Origin: G965261475 sp965261475 [NCBI: bacterium]
GTDB taxonomy: Bacteria > SAR324 > XYD2-FULL-50-16
Assembly: GCA_965261475.1 (NCBI GenBank)
Contig: OZ253454.1
Location: 1,302,001-1,366,000, forward strand
DNA: 64,000 nt
Direction: 5' to 3'
Part shown: positions 1 through 61,666 of the stretch, one piece after another
How the letters are laid out: each line of letters begins with the position of its first letter
Numbering within the stretch: the first letter of the stretch is position 1
Made by a program: the position numbers and the translations under genes
Notes under the pieces: model-generated
What the model was told of the DNA's origin: nothing
The model's input: the letters and a program-made list of their open reading frames with translations, nothing else
Databases searched by the model: none

Positions 1-2018
1 GCAAGCTAGTTTTACTACCTGCTCCAAGTGTAGATACTGGAATGGGATTAGAAAGAATAGTTTCTGTAATACAAGCAGTAGATTCTAATTATAAGACTGA
101 TATTTTCTTGCCACTGCTTGCTTGGATTGCTAAAGAAGGAAACTATACCTACGGCGCAAACAAAAATTTAGACATTTCTGTCCGAGTTATAGCAGATCAT
201 CTACGCTCTGTAAGTATTATTATTGCTGATGGAGTGCTTCCTGCTAACGAGGGTAGAGGTTATGTTTTGAGAAGAATTATCCGTAGAGCGCTCAGACACG
301 CAAAATACCTACAACAACCATTAGGTAGTTTTGCAGCAGGCAGTGTCTTTTTTGCTCAAGAAGTGCAAAACATTTTTCCTGAAGTCTACGAGCAAAAAGA
401 TTCTATTTACAAATATATTTTGCAAGAAGAAAAAAGATTTGCATCTACCCTAGACAATGGACTAAAAATTTTATTGGATTTAATAGCCGTCTCAAAAAAA
501 CAAAAAAAGACAGAGCTACAAGGTGAGAGTCTTTTTAAACTATACGATACTTACGGCTTTCCAATGGAGCTCGCTACAGAGATCCTAGCAGAAAATACAA
601 TGAGTTACAACAAAAGAGACTTTGAAGTATCTATGCAGAAACAAAAAGAAACCGCTAGAAAGCAGCAAATATTCAAACAAGAAAAATTGATGAAACCCTT
701 GCTAGATATTCAAAATATTTGGACAAAACAAAAAGAGCACTATAAAAATGAGTTTGTAGGCTACCAACCAACTAAAATAAAAAGCAAACTACAATTTATT
801 TGGAATGATAAGTTACGCTTAACGCAAGTAAGTAGAGGAGAAAAATTTTATTGCATACTAGCAAAAACGCCTTTTTATGCAGAATCTGGAGGACAAGTTG
901 GTGATACAGGTTGGCTAAAAAACGAAGATTTTATTATTCGTATTTTAAATACTCAAAAATCGCCAAATGGACTAAACTACTCTCTTGCTAAACTAGAGGT
1001 AGCAAATAAAAATTTACAATTAAGAGATCAAGATAATTTTATGGCAGAACTAGATGTAGCAAGAAGAAAGCAAATTCAAACACACCACACAAGTACACAC
1101 TTGCTAAACGCCGCCTTGAGAGAAGTAGTAGGTTTACACATCAAACAGGCTGGATCTCTGGTAAACGAACAAAAATTAAGGTTTGATTTTCAGCATTTTG
1201 AGCCACTTAACACTCAAGCACTCACAGAAGTAGCAGAGCTAGTAAATAACTATATTAGGGAAAACGAAGAAGTACTAAGCAAAACTATGCCTATAGACCA
1301 AGCACTAGCAACCGGAGCACTTGCTTTTTTTGGAGAAAAATACAAAGAGCAAGTACGAGTGGTGCAGGCAGGAAGGCATAGCAAAGAGCTGTGCGGGGGA
1401 TGTCATACTAGTAGAACAGGGGATTTAGGGTTTTTTCAAATTCTCTCTGAGTCGTCTTGTGCATCAGGAATTAGAAGAATTGAAGCTGTAGCCGGTAGCT
1501 CAGCTTGGAGTTGGCAAAAAAAACAAAATAGTAAATTTCAACTTCTAGCTAGTATCTTGCAAGAATCTACAAATAAAATATTCAATCTTGATCAGAGTAT
1601 TCAAGCAGCAAAGCACAAATCTCAGCATTTAGCACACATAACAAACGAAAATAAATTATTAAAAGCACGAATTTTGAAAGATTTTTTAACACAGGTTAAA
1701 ACAAAACTTTCAAAAAAAAAGTTGCTTTTTTTAGAAAATACTACTACGCTGCTTGATAATAAAAATTTAGCTGATTCTCTAATGAGAAAATTTCAGCCCG
1801 AGCTTCTTTGTCTATACAAAATAGACGGGCTCAAAGTGGAGGTTTTACTCTCTAAAAACAAAGCACTAGAAGGGTTTCAAGCAGGAGAGTTTATCAAAAA
1901 GCACTCTAGTGTGATTGGTGGAAAAGGAGGTGGTAATGATATTTTTGCTCGATGTAGTGGTAACAATTACGCAGGTTTAGCCAAGCTGCAAAAACTTTTA
2001 GAAGAACAAGTACAATGA
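1..2018 (+). CDS. alaS: Alanyl-tRNA synthetase, 5'-truncated by the window edge
   Basis: Charges tRNA-Ala with alanine in the cytoplasm. The reading frame is open from base 3 (K-L-V-L-L-P-A-P-S-V-D-T-G ahead of the first ATG at 42), so the gene starts outside the window and the ATG at 42 is internal. The visible part covers the end of the catalytic core (DTGMGLER), the tRNA-binding domain, the editing domain with its metal ligands HTSTH and CGGCH, and the C-terminal DHHA1 domain with the glycine-rich GGKGGG motif. Its TGA stop overlaps the ATG of gspC by four bases, so the two are probably translationally coupled. An alaS-gspC pairing is unusual. Identity is secure. Confidence 0.97.
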   Translation, partial: KLVLLPAPSVDTGMGLERIVSVIQAVDSNYKTDIFLPLLAWIAKEGNYTYGANKNLDISVRVIADHLRSVSIIIADGVLPANEGRGYVLRRIIRRALRHAKYLQQPLGSFAAGSVFFAQEVQNIFPEVYEQKDSIYKYILQEEKRFASTLDNGLKILLDLIAVSKKQKKTELQGESLFKLYDTYGFPMELATEILAENTMSYNKRDFEVSMQKQKETARKQQIFKQEKLMKPLLDIQNIWTKQKEHYKNEFVGYQPTKIKSKLQFIWNDKLRLTQVSRGEKFYCILAKTPFYAESGGQVGDTGWLKNEDFIIRILNTQKSPNGLNYSLAKLEVANKNLQLRDQDNFMAELDVARRKQIQTHHTSTHLLNAALREVVGLHIKQAGSLVNEQKLRFDFQHFEPLNTQALTEVAELVNNYIRENEEVLSKTMPIDQALATGALAFFGEKYKEQVRVVQAGRHSKELCGGCHTSRTGDLGFFQILSESSCASGIRRIEAVAGSSAWSWQKKQNSKFQLLASILQESTNKIFNLDQSIQAAKHKSQHLAHITNENKLLKARILKDFLTQVKTKLSKKKLLFLENTTTLLDNKNLADSLMRKFQPELLCLYKIDGLKVEVLLSKNKALEGFQAGEFIKKHSSVIGGKGGGNDIFARCSGNNYAGLAKLQKLLEEQVQ

Positions 2019-3103
2019 AAATGAATTTTTTACAAAAATATATAGATCTAAAAAGATGGAATGTGAAAGGTATTTTTTTGATTCTTAGACAAAAAAAAAT
2101 ATGGATCGCTTTGTCGTTAAATGCGGTTTTAGCGGGCGTTACTCTTTCTACTTACATAGAAAACAACCTACTAATAGCTAAAGCCTCCTATGAGCCTGTT
2201 CGTTTTAATTCTTACGATGGCAAAAGTGGACAAAAACCTTATACTTACTTCAAAGATTCGACAATTTATAATGCCTTTACGCCTCTACAAAAAATACCAA
2301 AAAAACAACCAAAAAAAAAGAAAACACCAAACTACTTGCTAGAATTACATAAGATTCAAAATAATTTAGAACTCCGCGGCACTATACTGCTAGGCTCTAT
2401 CAATTTTGCTGTCCTTTATCACAAAAAACAAAGAGTAGAAAAATCTTTCCAAGAAGGTAACAAGATCTTTACTACAAATGTTACATTGCAAAAAGTAAAA
2501 AGAGATAATGTTGTTTTAGCCTTTAGAGGTCATAGCTCTAAACTAGCCATTTATAAAACAGACAATTCAAAAAATATTATTGTCCCTGTTCAACCTAGTA
2601 AAAAAAAGAAAAAACTAGTAGCAGAAAAAAAACAACCGAAAAAACGAAGTAATCAGAAAGCCCAAGCTCGTCATAATAGCTCTAATAATAAGAAAGTTTT
2701 AACAGATTTAAAAAATGAGATTGCTAAAGAGCAATACCTAGGTAATTTTAATTTTAACCAAAAAGATGCCATTAAAATTCAAGATGACAATATCAATGTT
2801 AAGAAAGAGTATTTTGAAGGTGCCCTACACAATCTACCTGTAATGCTAAGTCACGCTAGAGCAGTGCCTTATAACAAAAATAATGAGTTTCTTGGCTATC
2901 AATTAGCTAATGTTCTCAAAGGGGGGATCTTCGACAAACTTGGTCTCAAACAAGGAGATATTATTACTAGTGTTAATGGTGAAAAGGTCAAAGATCTATC
3001 TCAAGTAATGCAATTTTTTTCCGTCTTAAAAAATGAAAAATATATTGCGGTGGATCTACTTAGAGATAGCAATGTTTTTACCATCAACTATTCTCTTATA
3101 TAG
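2015..3103 (+). CDS. gspC: Type II secretion inner-membrane protein GspC-like (HR and PDZ domains)
   Basis: GspC links the inner-membrane platform of the type II secretion system to the outer-membrane secretin. What is seen: a short cytoplasmic N-terminus, one membrane segment at about residues 29-48, a lysine-rich linker, a beta-rich region at about 113-175 whose pattern (LLGSINFAVLYHKK, then EGNKIF...VTLQKVKRDNVVLAF) matches the GspC homology region, a second basic linker, and a C-terminal PDZ domain (about 275-362; LGLKQGDIITSVNGEKV). This order is that of GspC. It overlaps the alaS stop (ATGA). gspE and gspF lie 8 kb away and no secretin is in the window. A PilP-like or other PDZ scaffold is a less likely alternative. 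Confidence 0.75.
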   Translation: MKMNFLQKYIDLKRWNVKGIFLILRQKKIWIALSLNAVLAGVTLSTYIENNLLIAKASYEPVRFNSYDGKSGQKPYTYFKDSTIYNAFTPLQKIPKKQPKKKKTPNYLLELHKIQNNLELRGTILLGSINFAVLYHKKQRVEKSFQEGNKIFTTNVTLQKVKRDNVVLAFRGHSSKLAIYKTDNSKNIIVPVQPSKKKKKLVAEKKQPKKRSNQKAQARHNSSNNKKVLTDLKNEIAKEQYLGNFNFNQKDAIKIQDDNINVKKEYFEGALHNLPVMLSHARAVPYNKNNEFLGYQLANVLKGGIFDKLGLKQGDIITSVNGEKVKDLSQVMQFFSVLKNEKYIAVDLLRDSNVFTINYSLI

Positions 3104-13537: not shown

Positions 13538-15658
13538 ATGAAACAAGCGCTCTTTATTATTTTGCTATTCGCCTTCTGCAACCCCCTTTGGGCAGCTATA
13601 TCTTTAAAAGAAAAAAACAGTTTAGCCCTGATAGAAAAACTATCTCAGGACTCCCTGTCTCACTTGGCACTGCTAGAAGTAGAGTATTTTTTAGCTAACT
13701 TTCCTAGTAGTAGCAAGAAAAAAGAAGTCAAACTCCAACAAGCTACTCTATTGACAAAAATAACCGATTACCAAGCTTCTATACAAATATTATCAGGATT
13801 AAAAATAACAGAGTTTCAAAAAGAAACCTATGAAGATCTTATTTTCTTGCAGGCAAAAAATTACCTTTTTACCCATGATTTTACACAGAGTTTAATTTTT
13901 TTTCAAAATATAGCTAGAGAAAAACAAGATTTATACTACTCCAATGCTTTTTATCAAGGAGTAGCTTACCTGTTTCTAGGGGAGCTTTTACTAGCAAAAC
14001 AAACAATCAACAACATCTCAAAAAACAAACAAACAAAGCGAGAACAACAAATTTTAGCAACTATCAACAAATGGAGTCCTCCAGAAAACATCACAACAAT
14101 ATTGGCAAATAAAAATTTTTCTCAGCTAGAAAAATTGATCCTAACAACTCTTTTTTTTGAGTTAGAGCTACAACAAAAGAATACAAAACAAGCACTAGAA
14201 AAATTGTTTTTTTTTAACTTACAAAATAAAAAATCAGATGGAATTTTTGCTATAGTAGATTTTTTAGTAGGTAAAGCTTTGTATAAGCTAGCTCAAGCTC
14301 AGCACTTGGAACATAAAATATTGCAAGAAGCTAAACAGTTTTTAGTGTCTTATCAAGAAAAACACAATAGCCCAACTCATCAGAGTTATTTTTATCTTGG
14401 CAATATTTATGCGGAATTAGGTGAGTATGATTTAGCTTATCGACAATACAATAATTTGCTACAGTATGTAGAATATACTAAACTAACGGATTTCATACTA
14501 AATTATGTCAAACTAAGTAGATTTTTACAAAAAACTTCCCTAGTTCCTGAGATTTTACAAAAAGCAACCAATAATACTACAGAGTTAAATACCAAAAAAA
14601 AATTTATCACAACATTGATAGATTTTTATACAGCGCAAAAAGTATGCAACAAAGCGGAGAGTTACCTCTTAGAAGTAGCGAGTATCACAAATAGTATAAA
14701 AAATTTTGAAGGCAATTTTATTCTGGGAAAATGCTATTTTGAGCAAAATGAACAGCTCAAAAGTTTGCATTATTTGGAAAAAATTCCCCTAGAGTACTCT
14801 AACGCCGCAAAAATTACTAAAATGATAGCTATAATTCTAGGTAAGCAAAAAAATAAAGAAAAATTTTTAGCATACTTTGCACCGACTAAAGACCCTGCAA
14901 CAAAAAAACACCAAGCAATACAAATAAATACTCTGCAATACTACTACTACGCAAAAGATTGGCAAGAGTTTATTAAAAATTTTCAGGCTTTGGAAAAAAC
15001 AAATTTTTTCTTAGCCGATTTTGACACCAAAAAACAACTAGCAACTGCTTACACTCAAAACAATCAACAAAGCAAAGCTACTGCAATCTATCTAGCACTA
15101 CTCAAAAATAACCTTGCTCCAAAAGACACCTCAGCCATTGTAAAAAAACTAATTCAAATATATCAAAAACAAAAATCTTACGCTAAAATCTCAGAGGTTT
15201 ATAAAATATTGTTAGAGGACCTGGCAGAAGCAAACAAGCCAAAAACCGAATTATTAATTGCTAAAAACTATCTAGCTGCTAAAAAAACTGTTTTAGCACA
15301 AAAATGGTTTCGGCGTATAGCCTATAGAAAAAATACTGCAACAATTCTAAACTACACAGAGCTGCAAGCAGAAGCGTTTTACTATCTTGCTGGAATTTAC
15401 TCTGCACAAAAAAAATATAAATCTGCAATTACGATTTTAATACCCGAGCTAAAACGCATTAGCATCAAAAACAAGTGGTACAGTAGGCTAAACTTTACAA
15501 TAGCTCAAGCCTACGCCAATCTACAACAATGGAAAAATGCTCTCAAACACTACAAAAAAGTAACAAATAAAAAAAATAGCAAGGAGAGTAGAATTGCTAA
15601 AGGCAACATCAATAAAATTCAGAGCTTCCTAACAAAGCAAAAACAAAATAATCAATAA
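13538..15658 (+). CDS. Exported TPR-repeat protein in the gspEF operon
   Basis: Function unknown. A signal peptide (MKQALFIILLFAFCNPLWA) is followed by about 680 residues of helical repeats with TPR signatures (YFYLGNIYAELGEYDLAYRQYNNLL; YYLAGIYSAQKKYKSAITILI; AQAYANLQQWKNALKHYKKV). It is predicted periplasmic or outer-membrane-associated. It begins 12 bases after gspF on the same strand, so it is probably co-transcribed with gspE and gspF and may assist secretin or pseudopilus assembly; this is inference from position. It converges on uvrA with a 39-base gap. Confidence 0.75.
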   Translation: MKQALFIILLFAFCNPLWAAISLKEKNSLALIEKLSQDSLSHLALLEVEYFLANFPSSSKKKEVKLQQATLLTKITDYQASIQILSGLKITEFQKETYEDLIFLQAKNYLFTHDFTQSLIFFQNIAREKQDLYYSNAFYQGVAYLFLGELLLAKQTINNISKNKQTKREQQILATINKWSPPENITTILANKNFSQLEKLILTTLFFELELQQKNTKQALEKLFFFNLQNKKSDGIFAIVDFLVGKALYKLAQAQHLEHKILQEAKQFLVSYQEKHNSPTHQSYFYLGNIYAELGEYDLAYRQYNNLLQYVEYTKLTDFILNYVKLSRFLQKTSLVPEILQKATNNTTELNTKKKFITTLIDFYTAQKVCNKAESYLLEVASITNSIKNFEGNFILGKCYFEQNEQLKSLHYLEKIPLEYSNAAKITKMIAIILGKQKNKEKFLAYFAPTKDPATKKHQAIQINTLQYYYYAKDWQEFIKNFQALEKTNFFLADFDTKKQLATAYTQNNQQSKATAIYLALLKNNLAPKDTSAIVKKLIQIYQKQKSYAKISEVYKILLEDLAEANKPKTELLIAKNYLAAKKTVLAQKWFRRIAYRKNTATILNYTELQAEAFYYLAGIYSAQKKYKSAITILIPELKRISIKNKWYSRLNFTIAQAYANLQQWKNALKHYKKVTNKKNSKESRIAKGNINKIQSFLTKQKQNNQ

Positions 15659-18481: not shown

Positions 18482-18629
18482 ATTAAAATTAAGTAAAAGA
18501 AATACCTATTTTTAGCAACTATTCTTTGTAAGAAAAAATTTAAAAACAACCTCATTAGAGATAAATTTTGCTGTTTTGATACTGCTATTTATTTGATAAA
18601 AAATAAAATTAAATACTAATAAAAAAATA

Positions 18630-18658
18630 TTGCATTAAAAAAAAAATCATTGTACTAT
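18630..18658 (+). promoter_or_regulatory. Putative promoter of the metY leader
   Basis: A TTGCAT hexamer at 18630-18635 and a TACTAT hexamer at 18653-18658 are separated by 17 bases, the optimal sigma-70 spacing; TTG immediately precedes the -10. Each hexamer matches the consensus only partly, so this is a moderate prediction. The expected start near 18665 would give a leader of about 190 nt before metY that contains a short ORF and a terminator. Confidence 0.45.
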
Positions 18659-18685
18659 TTTTACATATCTTTTAGAGTAGTCTTT

Positions 18686-18763
18686 ATGAAAAATTTTGTG
18701 ATGCGAATAATGTGCTTGATCTGTACCATTTTTTGGGGAAAAGCATTTTTGCATTCAAAATAA
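18686..18763 (+). CDS. Putative 25-residue leader peptide upstream of metY
   Basis: A short ATG-to-TAA ORF with methionine codons at positions 1, 6 and 9 and cysteine codons at 10 and 13 (core M-R-I-M-C-L-I-C). It sits between a plausible promoter and a strong intrinsic terminator, the layout of a translated attenuation leader. No Shine-Dalgarno sequence is seen, but that is true of nearly all genes here. Whether it is translated is inference. The rest of the 371-base uvrA-metY gap holds only AT-rich sequence. Confidence 0.4.
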   Translation: MKNFVMRIMCLICTIFWGKAFLHSK

Positions 18764-18785
18764 GATAACTCTAAATTTTGTTTAC

Positions 18786-18820
18786 AAAAAGCCCCCTCAA
18801 AGAATTTGAGGGGGCTTTTT
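18786..18820 (+). terminator. Rho-independent terminator (probable attenuator) before metY
   Basis: A perfect stem with a GCCCCCTC/GAGGGGGC core, extended by AAA/TTT and five further A:T pairs, closes on a GAA loop and runs into T6, ending 33 bases before the metY ATG. The flanking genes uvrA and metY diverge, so no plus-strand gene upstream needs a terminator. It therefore most likely ends transcription of the metY leader itself. This is the most GC-rich hairpin seen in the window. Confidence 0.8.
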
Positions 18821-18852
18821 TATTTATAAAAAAAATAATACAAAAATAAATT

Positions 18853-20139
18853 ATGACTACACACAAACTAGCTACACAGGTTTTACACGCAGGGCACGAA
18901 ATAGATGCGACAAACTCTCGAAGTGTTCCTATCTACCCTACTGTTTCCTACGTATTTAATGATACAAAGCACGCGGGCGACCTCTTTGCTTTGAAAGAAT
19001 TTGGTAATATCTACTCTAGGTTAATGAACCCGACAAATGATATTTTAGAAAAAAGAGTTACTGCTTTAGATGGTGGAGCTGCTGCATTAGCACTAGCGTC
19101 TGGGCAAGCAGCAGAAACAGCTGCAATTTTAACCATCACTCACTCAGGGCAGAATTTTATATCTGCTAAAAGCCTATATGGTGGCACTTGGACCTTATTT
19201 ACTCAAACTTTTGCTAAATTAGGTATAGAAGTTCGTTTCTTTGATTCGCAAAAACCAGAGCAAATCAAAAATCTAGTAGACGAAAATACTCGCTGTGTTT
19301 ATTTTGAGTCTATTGGCAACCCTAAAAACGATGTTCCAGATTTTCAAAAAATTTCAGATACAGCACATTCCGTAGGATTGCCTGTAATCTGTGATAATAC
19401 AGTGCTCACCCCCTATCTTTTTAAACCTATTGAACATGGGGTAGATATTATAGTTTACTCTACTACAAAATTTTATTCTGGGCACGGAGTGCACCTAGGA
19501 GGAGTGATTATAGATAGTGGAAAATTTATTTGGGCTGATAACCCTAAAAAATGGCCCGAATTTTGTGCTCCTACTCCTGCTTACAACGGAATAATTTTGG
19601 AGGAAGCCCTGAGACCTATTGGCAACATAGCTTATATTCTCCATATTAGAACTCATTGGCTGAGAGATACAGGCGCTGCAATGAGCCCCTTTGCTGCTTG
19701 GTTTACTCTACAAGGTATTGAAACCCTACACTTAAGACTGCAAAGGCACGTAGAAAATGCACAGAAAGTTGCAGAATTTTTAGAAAATTCTGATCGAGTA
19801 GAGTGGATTAGATATCCGGGATTGACAAGTCACAAAAACTACGAGCATACCAAAAAATACCTTAAAAATGGAGCTGGTGCTATTATTGGATTTGGTATTA
19901 AGGGCGGTTATAATTCTGCAGTTAAATTCATCAATTCTTTAAAATTAGCTAGTCACTTAGCAAATATAGGAGATGCGAAAACTTTGGTTATTCACCCCGC
20001 TTCTACCACCCACTCTCAGCTGACGCCAAAAGAGCAAGCACAAACAGGTGTTACTCCTGAGTTTGTACGTCTTTCTATTGGAATTGAGGATGTAGGAGAT
20101 ATCATACAAGATATTCAGCAAGCCTTGCTAGCGGAGTGA
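18853..20139 (+). CDS. metY: O-acetyl/O-succinyl-homoserine sulfhydrylase (PLP-dependent)
   Basis: Makes homocysteine (or methionine precursor) from activated homoserine and sulfide. It belongs to the Cys/Met metabolism PLP family: the start HKLATQVLHAGHEIDATNSRSVPIYPTVSYVFND is typical of MetY, the PLP lysine is in YSTTKFYSGHG, and LASGQAAETAAI and the long MetY-type insert around residue 230-270 are present. At 428 residues it is MetY-sized rather than MetB/MetC (about 385). Its TGA overlaps the GTG start of metX-metW by four bases, tying sulfhydrylation to homoserine activation. Confidence 0.93.
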   Translation: MTTHKLATQVLHAGHEIDATNSRSVPIYPTVSYVFNDTKHAGDLFALKEFGNIYSRLMNPTNDILEKRVTALDGGAAALALASGQAAETAAILTITHSGQNFISAKSLYGGTWTLFTQTFAKLGIEVRFFDSQKPEQIKNLVDENTRCVYFESIGNPKNDVPDFQKISDTAHSVGLPVICDNTVLTPYLFKPIEHGVDIIVYSTTKFYSGHGVHLGGVIIDSGKFIWADNPKKWPEFCAPTPAYNGIILEEALRPIGNIAYILHIRTHWLRDTGAAMSPFAAWFTLQGIETLHLRLQRHVENAQKVAEFLENSDRVEWIRYPGLTSHKNYEHTKKYLKNGAGAIIGFGIKGGYNSAVKFINSLKLASHLANIGDAKTLVIHPASTTHSQLTPKEQAQTGVTPEFVRLSIGIEDVGDIIQDIQQALLAE

Positions 20140-21959
20140 ATAAATACTTTCAAAATTCTGATGCAAGTATAGAAAATTTAGTTTCTAGCTTTCGTAAAAT
20201 TATACACTTGGCAGAAAGTTTTCCTCTAGAATTAGGAGGTTCTTTAGCAGGGTTAGACATTGCTTACGAAAGTTACGGAAAACTCAATAAAAATAAAAGT
20301 AATGTTGTACTAATTTGTCACGCCATTACCGGAGACTCTCACGTTGCAAAGCATACAAAAAATGATATTGTAGGATGGTGGGATTCTATGGTAGGCGCTG
20401 ATAAATATATTGATACTAATAAATATTTTGTGCTTTGCACTAATATCTTAGGTAGCTGTAGGGGTACAACAGGACCTCATTCTATTGATCCTCAAAGTCA
20501 AAAACCTTACTGTCAAGATTTTCCTAGAATCACTATAGGAGACATGGTCAACGCCCAAAGATTGTTCTTAAAAGCTTTAAGCATAGATTCTTTGTTGTGT
20601 GTTATTGGTGGTTCGTTAGGAGGATTCCAAGCGTTACAATGGGCAACTCAATATCCTCAAATAGTTAAAAATTGTGTTGTACTAGCAAGCTCAGCTCACC
20701 TGAATACTCAAGCACTAGCTTTTGATGTCATAGGTAGAAATGCAATTATTAGAGACCCTAATTATCAAGCAGGTCAGTATTATGACAAGCAAAAAAAACC
20801 AGATGTAGGTCTAGCAATCGCTAGAATGCTAGGGCATATTACCTACCTTTCTAAACAATCTATGGAAAAAAAGTTCCACAAAAATAAACTAACACCCAGG
20901 GCAATCGAAACTGATTTTGAGAAAAAATTTTCTGTTGGCTCTTACCTTGCGCATCAAGGGGATAAGTTTATAACAAGGTTTGATGCTAATAGCTATATTT
21001 GTTTATCTTTAGCTATGGATACTTTTGATTTAGGGAGCACCAAACAAGAATTGATCAAAATACTCAAGCAATCAAAGTGCTACTGGTTAATTATAAGTTA
21101 TACAAGCGACTGGTTGTTTCCAGCAACACAAAGTAATGAAATTGTGGAAGCACTATTGAATTTAGGAAAACACGTCAGCTATTGCAATATTCCTAGCGAA
21201 TGCGGGCACGATGCCTTTTTATTAGACGACGAATTGGAGGATTACGGTGGAGCAATCAAAAGTTTTTTACAAAAAACTTATTACGACAACCATCTAGTGA
21301 CTACTAAAAAAACAAAAATAGTACAAAAAAATACCAGTATTTTTTTCAAAGAAAGAATAGATTTTCAAACTATTGCCAGTCTTATTCCAAAAGAAGCTAG
21401 TCTGCTAGATCTAGGTTGTCAAAACGGAGAGTTACTAGAATTCCTGAGTGCTAGAGGAAACAACGCTATAGGTATAGAAGTGGATTATCAACAAGTCAAG
21501 ATAGGATTAAAAAAAGGTTTAAGAATTATACACTCAGACCTGAACCAGGGATTGCAAAGTTTTCAAAATCAACAATTCCAATTCGCTATTGTCTCTCAAA
21601 CCTTGCAATCTATTTGCAATGTCAAATATCTCTTAGCAGAAGTAGTGCGAGTAGCAGCAAAAACTATTGTTTCTTTTCCAAACTTTGCGTTCTTGCCTTT
21701 AAGAAAAATGCTCTACTTTGAAGGTAAATCTCCCAAAACAAAGGGTTGGTACAACTACGAGTGGTTTAATACTCCAAACTGTAGATTTCCTTCTATTTTA
21801 GATTTTCAAGAGCTTTGCGAAAAAATGAATATAGAAGTTTGCGATGCTATTTTCTTAAATACAGACACCAAAGAGCAAATACAAAAAGACCCTAATCGCA
21901 ATGCAGATAACGCTATTTTTGTAATTCAAAAAAAAATACAATCAACAACTACATTCTAG
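20136..21959 (+). CDS. metXW: Fused homoserine O-acyltransferase (MetX) and MetW methyltransferase-like protein
   Basis: Residues 1 to about 385 are a complete MetX alpha/beta-hydrolase that acylates homoserine: GSCRGTTGPHSIDP, the nucleophile elbow GGSLGG with Ser160, Asp325 (YTSDWLFP) and His358 (ECGHDAF). Residues from about 404 to 607 are a complete MetW: SAM-type motif LLDLGCQNGELL, SQTLQSICN, VSFPNFAFLPLR and GKSPKTKGWYNYEWFNTPN. In most proteobacteria metX and metW are adjacent, separate genes; here a short charged linker joins them in one frame with no internal stop. The acyl donor (acetyl- or succinyl-CoA) cannot be decided from sequence by eye. The GTG start overlaps the metY stop; the end overlaps convergent argS by 11 bases. 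Confidence 0.93.
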   Translation: MNKYFQNSDASIENLVSSFRKIIHLAESFPLELGGSLAGLDIAYESYGKLNKNKSNVVLICHAITGDSHVAKHTKNDIVGWWDSMVGADKYIDTNKYFVLCTNILGSCRGTTGPHSIDPQSQKPYCQDFPRITIGDMVNAQRLFLKALSIDSLLCVIGGSLGGFQALQWATQYPQIVKNCVVLASSAHLNTQALAFDVIGRNAIIRDPNYQAGQYYDKQKKPDVGLAIARMLGHITYLSKQSMEKKFHKNKLTPRAIETDFEKKFSVGSYLAHQGDKFITRFDANSYICLSLAMDTFDLGSTKQELIKILKQSKCYWLIISYTSDWLFPATQSNEIVEALLNLGKHVSYCNIPSECGHDAFLLDDELEDYGGAIKSFLQKTYYDNHLVTTKKTKIVQKNTSIFFKERIDFQTIASLIPKEASLLDLGCQNGELLEFLSARGNNAIGIEVDYQQVKIGLKKGLRIIHSDLNQGLQSFQNQQFQFAIVSQTLQSICNVKYLLAEVVRVAAKTIVSFPNFAFLPLRKMLYFEGKSPKTKGWYNYEWFNTPNCRFPSILDFQELCEKMNIEVCDAIFLNTDTKEQIQKDPNRNADNAIFVIQKKIQSTTTF

Positions 21960-28410: not shown

Positions 28411-29490
28411 ATGATGCTAACCAAATTAACCAAGATAATCTTGGCTGTCATAGTTGTTGTTTTCTTAGGTGTAACAAGCCTTAGTGCTCAAGTTACAAAA
28501 GTTGGTTTTGTATATGTAGGACCTATCGGAGATCACGGTTGGACCTACAGACATCATGTAGGATTGCAAGCCATAGAAAAGGCTTTTGGGGATACTGTAA
28601 AAACCAGTTATATTGAAAAAGTGCAAGAAGGAGCAGACTCTGTGCGTGTTATTCGTCAATTAGCTGCTAGTGGACACGATTTAATTTTTACTACTTCTTT
28701 TGGATTTATGAATCCTACGCTAAGAGTAGCTAAAGATTTTCCAAAAGCAAAATTTGAACATGCTACAGGCTACAAAACAGCTAACAACCTCAGCGTTTAC
28801 AACTCTAGGTTTTACGAAGCTAGGTATTTAACTGGTCTGATAGCAGGTAAAATGACTAAAACAAATAAACTAGGCTATGTAGCTTCTTTTCCTATTCCTG
28901 AAGTAATTCGGGGCATTAACTCTGCTATTTTAGGAGCAAGAAAGGTTAACCCTAAAGCTGAGATTCGTGTAATTTGGGTTAGCTCTTGGTATGATCCAGG
29001 TAAAGAATCAGACGCCGCACAAGCTCTAATTGACCAAGGAGTAGATATTATTCTGCAGCACACAGATAGCCCCGCTCCTTGTCAAACAGCAGAGAAAAAA
29101 GGTGTTTATTGTTTTGGACAAGCATCTGATAATTCTCATTTTGCTCCCAAAGCACACCTAACGGCTATCATAGATAATTGGGACGATTATTATGTGCAAA
29201 GAGTCAAAGATGTCAAATCTGGGACTTGGAAATCACAAAATATATGGTATGGTTTGAAAGAAGGAATAGTAAAATTATCTAGCTATAGTAAAGATGTTCC
29301 GACTAATGTCCGTGCTTTGGTAGAAAAAACAAGAAAAAATATTATTGCTGGTAGGGATCACCCTTTCACTGGCAAAATTCTAGCTCAAAACGGAAAAATA
29401 CTTTACAAGAAAGGACAAATCATTCCTGATAAAGATCTTGCAAGAATGAATTTTTATGTCAAAGGCGTAATAGGTAAAATACCTCAGTAA
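28411..29490 (+). CDS. BMP-family ABC transporter substrate-binding protein (first copy)
   Basis: A periplasmic binding protein of the basic membrane protein/Med family, which usually captures nucleosides, purines or related compounds for ABC uptake. A signal peptide (about residues 1-26, ending SLSA) precedes GFVYVGPIGDHGWTYRHHVGL, the family's DxGW-type motif, and SFPIPEVIRGINSAILGARKVNP, typical of proteobacterial BMP proteins. There is no lipobox, so it is probably soluble. The ligand cannot be read from sequence. Matching permeases lie at 48.2-50.2 kb; no matching ATPase is in the window. Confidence 0.88.
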   Translation: MMLTKLTKIILAVIVVVFLGVTSLSAQVTKVGFVYVGPIGDHGWTYRHHVGLQAIEKAFGDTVKTSYIEKVQEGADSVRVIRQLAASGHDLIFTTSFGFMNPTLRVAKDFPKAKFEHATGYKTANNLSVYNSRFYEARYLTGLIAGKMTKTNKLGYVASFPIPEVIRGINSAILGARKVNPKAEIRVIWVSSWYDPGKESDAAQALIDQGVDIILQHTDSPAPCQTAEKKGVYCFGQASDNSHFAPKAHLTAIIDNWDDYYVQRVKDVKSGTWKSQNIWYGLKEGIVKLSSYSKDVPTNVRALVEKTRKNIIAGRDHPFTGKILAQNGKILYKKGQIIPDKDLARMNFYVKGVIGKIPQ

Positions 29491-29818: not shown

Positions 29819-30865
29819 ATGAAAAAGTCTTATTTAGTATATGTATTATTTTTACTACTAGTTATTTTTGCTAGTTGTACCAAAAAATCTGTGGAAAAAC
29901 CTATGGAAGAATCTATGGAAGAATCTAGTTCAACTAGTTTTGCTCCTGCTGTTATTTTTGATATGGGAGGAAAATTTGATAAATCTTTTAACCAATCAGC
30001 TTACAACGGTGCAGAAAGATTTAAATCAGAAACTGGTATCCAATACAAAGAGTTTGAGATTACCAATCCATCACAAAGAGAACAAGCCGTAAGAAAAATG
30101 GCGGAAAAGAAAAGCGATCTCATCATTGGTATAGGTTTCGGTCAAGCAGATGCTATAGACAAGGTTGCTAGAGAAAACCCAGATTTAAAGTTTGTTATTA
30201 TAGACTCAGTGGTCAACCAGCCTAACGTACAATCTGTAATTTTTAAAGAGCAGGAGGGCTCTTTTTTAGTAGGAATGTTAGCTGCCCTAAATTCTCAGAC
30301 CAATGCTATTAGTTTTATAGGAGGTATGGATATTCCTCTCATTAGAGCGTTTGCTTGCGGTTTTGAGCAGGGCGCAAAACATGTTAATGCTGAAATCAAA
30401 GTTATTCAAAATATGACTGGCAATGATCCATCTGCGTGGAATAATCCTAGTAAAGGTGCAGAACTTGCTAAATCTCAATTTGAAAAAGGTTCAGATATAG
30501 TTTTTGCTGCTGCTGGCGCTACAGGTAGTGGAGTCTATCAAGCCGCTAAAGATAGCGGAAAATTCGCAATAGGTGTGGATAGCAATCAGAATTATTTGCA
30601 CCCAGGAACTATGCTTTCTTCTATGGTTAAAAAAGTAGATGTGGCAGTTTATCAAGCTATGAAAGCAGCTCAAGATGGCTCTTGGAAAAGTGGTATTAGA
30701 GTGCTTGGTTTAAAAGAGAAAGGAGTAGATTGGGCTTTAGATGAGCACAATGCCCCTTTAGTTTCTGATGAAATAATACAGAAAATATCTCAAGCTAAGC
30801 AAGATATCATTGACGGTAAAATTACCGTAGTAGATTATAGAGCTAATAATACTTGTAGTTATTAG
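29819..30865 (+). CDS. BMP-family lipoprotein, ABC transporter substrate-binding (second copy)
   Basis: A BMP/Med-type binding lipoprotein. The lipobox FASC places the lipidated cysteine at residue 20. A short acidic linker made of VEKP-MEES-MEES repeats follows, encoded by 12-base tandem repeats. The binding domain has FDMGGKFDKSFNQSAYNGA, IGIGFGQADAI, GSFLVGMLAAL and FAAAGATGSGVYQAA, the pattern of BmpA/TmpC purine-nucleoside receptors. It is clearly distinct in sequence from the first copy, so the two probably have different ligands or origins. A strong terminator follows. Confidence 0.9.
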   Translation: MKKSYLVYVLFLLLVIFASCTKKSVEKPMEESMEESSSTSFAPAVIFDMGGKFDKSFNQSAYNGAERFKSETGIQYKEFEITNPSQREQAVRKMAEKKSDLIIGIGFGQADAIDKVARENPDLKFVIIDSVVNQPNVQSVIFKEQEGSFLVGMLAALNSQTNAISFIGGMDIPLIRAFACGFEQGAKHVNAEIKVIQNMTGNDPSAWNNPSKGAELAKSQFEKGSDIVFAAAGATGSGVYQAAKDSGKFAIGVDSNQNYLHPGTMLSSMVKKVDVAVYQAMKAAQDGSWKSGIRVLGLKEKGVDWALDEHNAPLVSDEIIQKISQAKQDIIDGKITVVDYRANNTCSY

Positions 30866-30878
30866 TTAGCAAACATAT

Positions 30879-30905
30879 AGAGGAGTTAGGTTAACTCCTC
30901 TTTTA
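30879..30905 (+). terminator. Rho-independent terminator after the second BMP gene
   Basis: AGAGGAGTTA (30879-30888) and TAACTCCTCT (30892-30901) form a perfect 10-bp stem with a GGT loop, followed by a short T-rich run. It separates the BMP gene from rpmF, which starts about 20 bases later. Confidence 0.75.
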
Positions 30906-40877: not shown

Positions 40878-41702
40878 TTATATTAGATATCTAGTTTCAT
40901 AAAAGAAAACAACTATTGCAAAAAAGTATAACAACATATTTATTTTAGCTTCAAAAGAATGAGAAATCGTATAAAAATTCTTCCATAGAATGAAAATACC
41001 ATAAATAAACCAAAAAAAGATAGGAAGCAATAGCCTTAAATTCCAAGTTAAAAAAAAATTTTGTTGTAAATTACTGCCTCCTATAAATAAAGATAAAAAA
41101 ATAGCTACAGACAAGCAAAAAAAACCTATGTTTATTAAAAAACTATTATTGCTTTGCAATGTGCTAATGCTAGGTAAATAGCGATTTAGAGATACTCTTT
41201 TCTGCTTAAGCTGAAAATCACAAATAAGAAAAAAAATGCTAGTGATAAATACAATAGAAAAAATTAAATAGGTAAAAATAAAAAACACAACATGGATAAA
41301 AAGCAATATTTTTTGTAAAACTAATTGTTGTGCTAAAAAATCGCTACGATGTTTTAATAATACAAAGGACAAAATTAGCAAAAAAAATACAAATCCAGAC
41401 AGCACCAAGCTCCAGTAAATTTCATTTTTGATTTTGATAATAAAAATAAATGCTAAATTGATAGCAAAAGCACAAAAAAACACAATCATACTAGATTGCA
41501 ACCAGTATTGTAGACCCCAAATAACAAAGTAAGAAGTTTGTAACAAGACCAATAGAATAGCAGCAGCAAAAACTAGAGGGAATAACCTTTGTTGTTTTTT
41601 AAAAAACATAATCCAAGATAACAACCAACAGTGGAAACCTACTAAAATAATAAGTTTAAAATAATAAGGAGCAATGTACTCTATAAAGTTAATGCTTGAC
41701 AT
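40878..41702 (-). CDS. CcsA/YpjD-family integral membrane protein
   Basis: A 274-residue protein with about eight membrane segments and little else. The segment order and the region LLFIHVVFFIFTYLIFSIVFITSIFFL followed by a QLKQKR turn and TWNLRLLLPIFFWFIYGIFI near the end match the YpjD/HemX-like cytochrome c assembly family (CcsA/CcmC superfamily). The tryptophan-rich WWD haem motif of true CcsA is not seen. Function in this organism is unknown. It is 11 bases before lysC. Confidence 0.65.
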   Translation of the reverse strand: MSSINFIEYIAPYYFKLIILVGFHCWLLSWIMFFKKQQRLFPLVFAAAILLVLLQTSYFVIWGLQYWLQSSMIVFFCAFAINLAFIFIIKIKNEIYWSLVLSGFVFFLLILSFVLLKHRSDFLAQQLVLQKILLFIHVVFFIFTYLIFSIVFITSIFFLICDFQLKQKRVSLNRYLPSISTLQSNNSFLINIGFFCLSVAIFLSLFIGGSNLQQNFFLTWNLRLLLPIFFWFIYGIFILWKNFYTISHSFEAKINMLLYFFAIVVFFYETRYLI

Positions 41703-60031: not shown

Positions 60032-60463
60032 TTATACTATCTGTTTTATCATTGCGTGCAAAGCTGCTACTGCTTTTCTAGCGTAGGGCTCTAAGCGAGG
60101 CGGTATTTGCTCTGCGCTAATTTCTGGACCTAAAATTCCAATGCCCATAGGCATAGATAATTCTAATTGTAACCTAATCAAAGCAGAAACAACACTTTGA
60201 GCCATTACCAGTCCATGGGCTGTCTCTCCTTTTTCAATAATCCCCAAAACAACTACTCCACGAGTACTAGCTCCACTAATACTAGTAGAGGCAGCTCTAC
60301 TAGTGCAAAGAGGTAATTCCATAGCACCTGGTACCCAAAACTCTTGGTTAATAATCAGATTCAATTTTTTAGCTTCGTCTCTAGCATAACCTAGCATTTG
60401 TTTCATAGCATCTTGATGAAAAGAGCTTAATGCAAGGTTAATGTAAGTGTTAGTAAGTAGCAT
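60032..60463 (-). CDS. ribH: 6,7-dimethyl-8-ribityllumazine synthase
   Basis: Condenses the ribityl-aminouracil and dihydroxybutanone phosphate in riboflavin synthesis. Conserved regions are VPGAMELPLCT, VVLGIIEKGETAHGLVMAQSV with the catalytic histidine, and MGIGILGPEISAEQIPPRL with the phosphate-binding arginine. At 143 residues it is a little short and rather divergent, and the usual IRGxTPHF reads IEKGETAHG. It overlaps the 3' end of the preceding gene by 14 bases. No other rib gene is in the window. Confidence 0.85.
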   Translation of the reverse strand: MLLTNTYINLALSSFHQDAMKQMLGYARDEAKKLNLIINQEFWVPGAMELPLCTSRAASTSISGASTRGVVVLGIIEKGETAHGLVMAQSVVSALIRLQLELSMPMGIGILGPEISAEQIPPRLEPYARKAVAALHAMIKQIV

Positions 60464-61655
60464 GTTTTATTTCTAGAGAAAAATAAGTAATTTGTTCCTC
60501 TTTTGTTGCCAGTAAAAATATATCTTTTTTTAAAATTTTTTGCCATTTTGTTTTATTTTGCTCCCAAAAATCTGTTTTTAGAGAAGCAATTTTGAGCAAA
60601 ATTTTGGCATCGTCTTGCTCAAAAAATACAAGCCAAAAATCGTCAAACGGTAATTTTTCTATTTCTTTTAAAATATTAGAGGGAAAAAGCAACGAGCGTT
60701 GTCTAAGCTCTTGTAGTATTTGTTGGTGAAACGCTGTCACTCCTCTAGTGAATAATTTTTGTGTTTTACTATTTTGAGTGGAATTTTTTTGTAATTTTCG
60801 AAGCTCAATTAACTCTGTGTGTAATTTTTGTGTAATATAAAAATTATTAAAAATAAAGAAAAAAGAAAAACATAGCATTGCAACACAACCTATGTAAGCT
60901 AAAGCAGATTTATTATGTTTTTTGCTCTTTGCTTTCTGAGATATAGGTTTTTTACTGCTAAAAAAATCTTGATAAGAAGGAAAGAAAAAAGATTTATTTT
61001 CTGCAATAAAATTATTATTTATTTTTTCTTTCTGTTTGATTAAAAAAAAATAAATATCATTGATTTCAATATTAGTAATACTTTGCACTGCTTGCAAAAA
61101 TTCTGTATTTGATAGTTGTTGTAGATTGGGAAAATACTGAATATCAGAAAAATATTTTTGTATAATAATAACTTCATTATCTAAGCAAAATGCAATATTT
61201 TTATTTTGTGGGCAAGCAAGGGCTTTATTAAAAAAATAAGAAGCGGCTGGTTCTAAACTATGTACAAATGGTATATTTTTCATAAAAAAATTTTTTTTAT
61301 TATACATGTAGTAGGCAAAGCGAATTTGTGTGCTAGTGATCCGAAAGGCTTGTATATATCTATGCTTTGCTTGTAGCATTTGAGGTGGCAAAATAGCTTC
61401 CCATAAATTATCGTATTCTTTTTTATATAAAGCAGGCAGATATGGAAGGAATGTCTTGACGTCGGGGTAACTAATGAGAACTTTTTTAAAGGAAATTTTT
61501 TTAAAATCAGATAGCCTAATAGGCTCTAGTTTGTAATAAAAAAAAAATTTACCTTGATTGGCAGAAACTCTCTTCACAAAATAAGGAGAAATCAGGTAAG
61601 GTTGGTTTTTGTGAATTATAATAAGGTCAATAGGATCTCTTCTTTTTGGAGCCAT
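60450..61655 (-). CDS. Single-pass membrane protein with GspL/PilM-PilN-like architecture
   Basis: Not firmly recognised. A cytoplasmic domain of about 245 residues ends in a lysine-rich stretch (KAKSKKHNK). A single membrane segment follows (about 250-272, ALAYIGCVAMLCFSFFFIFNN), then a short coiled-coil-like part and a periplasmic alpha/beta domain of about 100 residues. This is the layout of GspL, which anchors GspE to the inner membrane, and the SLEPAASYFFNKAL region resembles the end of the actin-like GspL domain. Since gspC, gspE and gspF are in the window, GspL is the best guess. The ATG at 61655 is used rather than a TTG two codons upstream. Confidence 0.45.
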   Translation of the reverse strand: MAPKRRDPIDLIIIHKNQPYLISPYFVKRVSANQGKFFFYYKLEPIRLSDFKKISFKKVLISYPDVKTFLPYLPALYKKEYDNLWEAILPPQMLQAKHRYIQAFRITSTQIRFAYYMYNKKNFFMKNIPFVHSLEPAASYFFNKALACPQNKNIAFCLDNEVIIIQKYFSDIQYFPNLQQLSNTEFLQAVQSITNIEINDIYFFLIKQKEKINNNFIAENKSFFFPSYQDFFSSKKPISQKAKSKKHNKSALAYIGCVAMLCFSFFFIFNNFYITQKLHTELIELRKLQKNSTQNSKTQKLFTRGVTAFHQQILQELRQRSLLFPSNILKEIEKLPFDDFWLVFFEQDDAKILLKIASLKTDFWEQNKTKWQKILKKDIFLLATKEEQITYFSLEIKHATY

Positions 61656-61666
61656 TAGCAAATATT

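What the first reader, a model, noticed from the sequence alone, without database searches (positions are those of the whole stretch)
18630..18852. Candidate attenuator with a Met/Cys-containing leader peptide controlling metY-metXW
Between divergent uvrA and metY there is, in order, a promoter-like pair with 17-base spacing, a 25-codon ORF with Met at 1, 6, 9 and Cys at 10, 13, and a strong intrinsic terminator ending 33 bases before metY. No upstream plus-strand gene needs that terminator, so it most likely acts on metY itself. TTTTTTGGGG (18729-18738) can pair imperfectly with CCCCTCAAAG inside the terminator's 5' arm. A ribosome stalled at Met9/Cys10 would leave that segment free to form an antiterminator. 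Control of methionine genes by leader-peptide attenuation is uncommon in proteobacteria, which mostly use MetJ or SAM riboswitches.
Basis: partly seen in the sequence, partly recalled or inferred. Interest (0 to 1): 0.68.

Follow-up and report, generated by a model that had tools for sequence, protein, structure and literature searches.

The report
Likely Met/Cys attenuator before metY
A short stretch of RNA in front of methionine-making genes looks like a classic bacterial switch in which a ribosome stalling on methionine or cysteine codons would decide whether transcription continues, an unusual way to control methionine genes.

Summary
A longer one is predicted: 18730-18751 pairs with almost the whole 5' arm of the terminator. 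In ribosome-free RNA a 106-nt hairpin hides that segment and the terminator forms. Masking up to a ribosome at codons 2-12 (Met6, Met9, Cys10 included) frees it; masking further along removes it. This switch is reached by 2 of 500 shuffled leaders, 0 of 530 decoys of the window's own DNA and 0 of 10 E. coli gene-end terminators; 4 of 6 known E. coli attenuators behave alike. Met and Cys are enriched at the switching codons. No Rfam family reaches threshold. The organism is unplaced, lacks Shine-Dalgarno sites and is not evidently proteobacterial. No close relative was found, so conservation could not be tested. Best reading: ribosome-mediated attenuation of metY-metXW, confidence 0.62.

The parts
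18671..18776 (+). Long imperfect leader hairpin that encloses the ORF and hides segment 2 when no ribosome is present
   Evidence: MFE -30.1, z -4.73, 0 of 300 shuffles as low; best of 160 control windows -3.72
18686..18763 (+). Candidate leader peptide ORF, 25 codons plus stop; Met6 18701-18703, Met9 18710-18712, Cys10 18713-18715, Cys13 18722-18724
   Evidence: Met+Cys enrichment; translation not shown
18712..18728 (+). Segment 1: pairs with 18734-18746 (1:2 hairpin, -8.7 kcal/mol); starts in the Met9/Cys10 codons
   Evidence: Fold of 18711-18746
18730..18751 (+). Segment 2: antiterminator strand, pairs with 18785-18803
   Evidence: Predicted fold of masked RNA, -16.8 kcal/mol; ribosome-position profile
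18785..18803 (+). Segment 3: 5' arm (and loop) of the terminator, also the antiterminator partner
18786..18820 (+). Intrinsic terminator hairpin, followed by a T-rich tract
18853..20139 (+). metY, O-acetylhomoserine aminocarboxypropyltransferase/cysteine synthase
   Evidence: TIGR01326, 644.3 bits, cut-off 495.1
20136..21959 (+). metX-metW fusion, overlaps the end of metY
   Evidence: NF001209 467.7 bits (cut-off 331) and TIGR02081 190.6 bits (cut-off 189.5)

Best explanation
A ribosome-mediated transcription attenuator of the metY-metXW operon. If the short ORF is translated to its stop codon, the ribosome covers part of segment 2 and the terminator forms. If the leader is not translated, the long hairpin hides segment 2 and the terminator also forms. 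If methionyl- or cysteinyl-tRNA is scarce, a ribosome waiting at Met6, Met9 or Cys10 breaks the 1:2 hairpin, segment 2 captures the terminator's 5' arm, and polymerase reads through into metY-metXW. Shown: the anatomy, the predicted mutually exclusive pairings, their dependence on ribosome position and their rarity in controls. Inferred: transcription, translation of the ORF, the start site (the predicted switch needs it at about 18640-18672), ribosome footprint (recalled, about 12 nt beyond the A site) and the amino acid sensed (Met most likely, Cys possible).
For: P(core of terminator 5' arm pairs upstream) is 0.03 without ribosome, 0.74 for A-site codons 2-12, 0.61 near codon 13, 0.24 at 14-15, at most 0.08 from 16 on; 3 of 1500 shuffles switch as much. 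With the mask free to move: 2 of 500 shuffles, 0 of 530 decoys (highest 0.57 against 0.60), 0 of 10 E. coli gene-end terminators (highest 0.19). E. coli thr, phe, trp, leu leaders switch by 0.68, 0.64, 0.57, 0.45, this one by 0.61. Leader hairpin z -4.73. Only terminator within 200 nt of a start in 21 upstream regions. Codons 4-13 hold 2 Met and 2 Cys, P 8e-5 against the window's genes, 5e-4 against base composition.
Against: No comparative evidence. In 38 distant metY loci only one (L032) has a strong terminator upstream and it does not switch. Only four non-initiator Met/Cys codons, not consecutive for one amino acid; over all 24 codons P is 0.003 (genes) to 0.017 (base composition). Simple duplex strength is ordinary (228 of 2000); 43 of 1500 shuffles reach the masked core probability. 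Tests were chosen after seeing the structure. With a start at 18630 or 18680 the predicted switch weakens or vanishes. his and ilv leaders fail the same test. No start signal is recognisable for the ORF.
Confidence: 0.62

Rival explanations
1. The terminator ends a separate small transcript: a small RNA, or a mini-gene such as a type I toxin-like hydrophobic peptide whose start region is folded against the 3' end. metY has its own promoter.
For: 18671-18685 pairs with bases just after the stop codon, as recalled for some type I toxin mRNAs; the peptide has a hydrophobic 15-mer (mean hydropathy 1.97).
Against: Only 32 bases between hairpin and metY, so a separate promoter would have to overlap the terminator (inference); no Pfam or NCBIfam match for the peptide; the ribosome-dependent switch is not expected.
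Confidence: 0.14
2. The leader is a terminator-type regulator of another sort: an undescribed riboswitch or protein-binding leader in which the 106-nt hairpin is the sensor, with the ORF accidental.
For: The hairpin is unusually stable; other metY genes carry SAM riboswitches (L035, L014); the ORF length is expected by chance.
Against: No Rfam family reaches threshold; the switching positions coincide with codons 2-13 of an ORF enriched in Met and Cys.
Confidence: 0.13
3. A constitutive terminator or insulator with no regulation; ORF and pairing are coincidences of AT-rich DNA.
For: An ORF of 25 codons occurs in 26% of shuffles; duplex strength alone is ordinary. The hairpin also reads as a terminator on the minus strand.
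Against: The gene on the plus strand before it ends at 15658, beyond uvrA; strong terminators are nearly absent from this window; the switch is rare in three kinds of control.
Confidence: 0.09

Closest known systems
E. coli thr, phe, trp and leu leader-peptide attenuators
   Same: Short ORF, 1:2 hairpin, antiterminator, terminator; comparable switch profile; ORF stop to terminator 22 nt here, 19 in thr and 20 in leu
   Different: Control codons are Met/Cys and few; no Shine-Dalgarno; different genes and a distant lineage
[quoted passage not shown]
   Same: Candidate leader ORF with Cys codons before sulphur amino acid genes
   Different: Those have runs of Cys codons near the stop and no terminator hairpin; here a strong terminator and mixed Met/Cys
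SAM riboswitch (S box, RF00162)
   Same: Terminator-type or leader control of methionine genes; present upstream of metY in L035 and L014
   Different: No match in the window at gathering score nor in the permissive local search

Membership tests
Ribosome-mediated transcription attenuator | Short ORF upstream of the operon with codons for the relevant amino acid | tested here: met
   ORF 18686-18763; Met+Cys enriched at codons 4-13, though an ORF of this length is common by chance
Ribosome-mediated transcription attenuator | Intrinsic terminator between the ORF and the first gene | tested here: met
   18786-18820
Ribosome-mediated transcription attenuator | Mutually exclusive antiterminator freed by a ribosome at the control codons | tested here: met
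   In prediction only:
Ribosome-mediated transcription attenuator | Conservation of ORF, codons and pairing in relatives | not testable with these tools
   No close relative found
Ribosome-mediated transcription attenuator | Read-through rises when the amino acid is scarce | not testable with these tools
   Needs experiment
SAM riboswitch | Match to the family's covariance model | tested here: not met
T-box | Match to the family's covariance model | tested here: not met
   Not among the 27 weak matches nor
Type I toxin-antitoxin | Peptide matches a known toxin family | tested here: inconclusive
   No NCBIfam or Pfam match, but such short peptides are often not modelled
Type I toxin-antitoxin | Antisense RNA over the ORF | not tested
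   No expression data

The most novel reading that the evidence does not exclude
A leader-peptide attenuator that senses methionine (perhaps with cysteine) through charged tRNA controls the direct-sulphydrylation methionine operon in a deep bacterial lineage that starts translation without Shine-Dalgarno sites, so this mechanism arose outside the groups where it is described and for an amino acid normally sensed as SAM or through repressors.
Probability: 0.42. Interest if true: 0.68.

Novelty: new variant of a known kind. Interest (0 to 1): 0.52.

Why it matters
Leader-peptide attenuators are well known for Trp, His, Thr, Leu, Ile/Val and Phe (recalled; E. coli examples). Methionine genes are usually said to be controlled by SAM riboswitches or repressors (recalled). 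In the passages I saw of PMC1262725 no conserved RNA structure was found upstream of methionine operons in Actinobacteria. In those of PMC2965389 leader-peptide systems were said in 2010 to be known only from Proteobacteria and Actinobacteria, with a new histidine case in bacilli. A Met/Cys attenuator in an unplaced lineage would widen both the amino acids sensed and the range of the mechanism, and would let tRNA charging rather than SAM set the operon's output.

Tried and rejected
Close relatives. MetY in genome contigs: 64 stretches matched a pattern, 35 loci confirmed, best 74% identity, from distant phyla; in viral contigs none; in plasmids 1265 records, all under 60%. MetXW in 246 genomes of the phylum of G009 (45 matched at E 1e-80; best 51% over the whole fusion, 56% over the metX part of one) and in 240 of the phylum of G007 (152 matched, best 51%). 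UvrA in 21, 246, 119 and 118 genomes: at most 54% over full length. The matching genomes other than G017 carry handles already seen. MetY in 149 and 140 genomes (5 and 7 matched at E 1e-180; best 71% and 73%).

Upstream regions of metY in 38 loci (L036 and L038 have little upstream DNA, L040 a misplaced start whose two rows I dropped). One strong terminator, L032 (-27.6); no switch there (free 0.01, masked at most 0.19). Five loci have weaker hairpins (-9.4 to -13.0).

Simple duplex tests with the terminator arms: not significant (228 of 2000 and 754 of 1000). Repeats: only weak repeats and inverted pairs inside 18550-18860; copies elsewhere in the window were not searched for. DNA similarity of 18600-18860: 47 plasmid and 44 phage records at E up to 1, none covering 80% of the query; most rows shown lie on the terminator and the bases after it. 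First yardstick kept the mask fixed in shuffles, which flatters the observed value; repairs this for the window but not for the six E. coli leaders.

Literature. Ten searches: no listed title or abstract start reports a methionine leader-peptide attenuator. One search listed 15 of 94 papers. Passages only were seen of PMC1262725, PMC2965389, PMC1183508 and PMC1273637. The 2004 survey of proteobacterial attenuators cited in PMC1273637 was not looked up.

Full report
Observation. The sequence holds a 25-codon ORF at 18686-18763, a perfect 16-pair hairpin at 18786-18820 followed by a T-rich tract, metY at 18853, a metX-metW fusion behind it and uvrA divergent. The ORF is unremarkable in length (26% of 3000 shuffles) and less so in Met/Cys content (1.3% with at least 3 Met and 2 Cys).

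The terminator is exceptional in this DNA. A scan of both strands of the 64 kb lists three hairpins: this one, the same hairpin read on the minus strand, and one at 30879-30901 just after a gene. A relaxed scan of 21 upstream regions finds terminators only at these places, and only this one within 200 nt of a gene start.

Structure. Folding 18660-18825 gives a long imperfect hairpin around the ORF plus the terminator. The hairpin alone, 18671-18776, has z -4.73 with 0 of 300 shuffles as low; the lowest of 160 windows spread over the 64 kb has -3.72, and that one contains the 30879 terminator. Its apex is a 1:2 hairpin, 18712-18728 with 18734-18746, whose 5' strand starts in the Met9/Cys10 codons.

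Switch. When the bases up to a ribosome at Met9 or Cys10 are masked and the 3' arm is not yet made, 18730-18751 pairs with 18785-18803, almost all of the terminator's 5' arm (-16.8 kcal/mol). Moving the ribosome along the ORF gives a plateau of 0.74 for A-site codons 2-12, 0.61 near codon 13, 0.24 at 14-15 and at most 0.08 from 16 on; without a ribosome it is 0.03 (over the whole arm 0.20 free and 0.86 masked). Once the RNA reaches 18816 the terminator is favoured in every state. In the known E. coli leaders, too, adding the 3' arm makes the masked RNA much more stable (thr -18.6 to -33.9 kcal/mol; here -15.1 to -33.8), so the outcome would be kinetic. With the transcript starting at 18640-18672 the free RNA hides segment 2 at 20 to 45 C; with a start at 18630 it does not, and at 18680 or 18686 only partly.

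Controls. With a fixed mask 3 of 1500 shuffles switch as much, 43 of 1500 reach the masked core probability and 0 of 1500 the masked whole-arm probability. With the mask free to move in each sequence, 2 of 500 shuffles, 0 of 530 native decoys (highest 0.57 against 0.60) and 0 of 10 E. coli gene-end terminators (highest 0.19) reach it (I gave 34 of the 45 features of that stretch, 10 of which had a terminator by the script's criteria). Of six E. coli leaders, thr, phe, trp and leu show plateaus over their control codons; his and ilv fail. The plain leader-to-arm duplex is ordinary (228 of 2000), so the signal lies in conditional exposure, not in raw complementarity. These tests were designed after the structure had been seen.

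Amino acid. Codons 4-13 hold 2 Met and 2 Cys; Met and Cys are 1.39% and 1.18% of residues in 49 of the window's genes. P is 8e-5 against those genes and 5e-4 against local base composition; over all 24 codons it is 0.003 and 0.017. Phe, Val, Arg, Ile and Leu are not enriched. This fits a methionine operon whose first enzyme family is also named cysteine synthase. The counts are small, and PMC1183508 (passages) stresses that many regulatory codons make attenuation sensitive, which counts against strong control here.

Organism. No whole genome is held. UvrA is 47% identical to that of E. coli, about 50% to the best plasmid-collection records, alphaproteobacteria among them, and at most 54% over full length to the genomes. 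I cannot place the lineage; a proteobacterial setting is not supported. In 51 gene starts no AGGAGG, GGAGG, AGGAG, GGAG or AGGA lies in the 20 bases examined, and GAGG in 2.

Alternatives. No Rfam family reaches its threshold in the region or window apart from one tRNA (the 27 weak matches centre on the terminator, His_leader among them at 31.6 bits against a threshold of 49). Two distant metY loci have SAM riboswitches (11 of the 47 loci then held were searched). A small RNA or type I toxin-like mini-gene stays possible because the start region pairs with bases after the stop and the peptide is partly hydrophobic.

Verdict. In prediction it works like a classical attenuator and meets those defining features that could be tested. 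Conservation and regulation are untested, and the amino acid sensed is inferred.

Noticed in passing
whole window, 51 gene starts: No Shine-Dalgarno core of the GGAG/AGGA type before any of 51 gene starts and GAGG in 2: the organism seems to start translation without it.
   Followed up: partly
whole window: Strong intrinsic terminators are nearly absent at gene ends; besides the metY hairpin only 30879-30901 was found.
   Followed up: partly
20136-21959: metX and metW are fused into one gene; similar full-length matches beside metY occur in several of the distant loci, such as L001, L012 and L033.
   Followed up: partly
28411-29490 and 29819-30865: Two neighbouring PnrA-like (Bmp) substrate-binding proteins.
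   Followed up: no
2015-3103, 40878-41702, 60450-61661: Three ORFs of 274-403 aa without a Pfam match at E 1e-8.
   Followed up: no
L032:973-1015: A very strong terminator (-27.6 kcal/mol) 51 nt before metY in an Ignavibacteriae record, with no ribosome-type switch in the same test; its function is open.
   Followed up: partly
L035:1340-1476 and L014:4657-4754: SAM riboswitches upstream of metY in a Bacteroidia and a Planctomycetales record.
   Followed up: no
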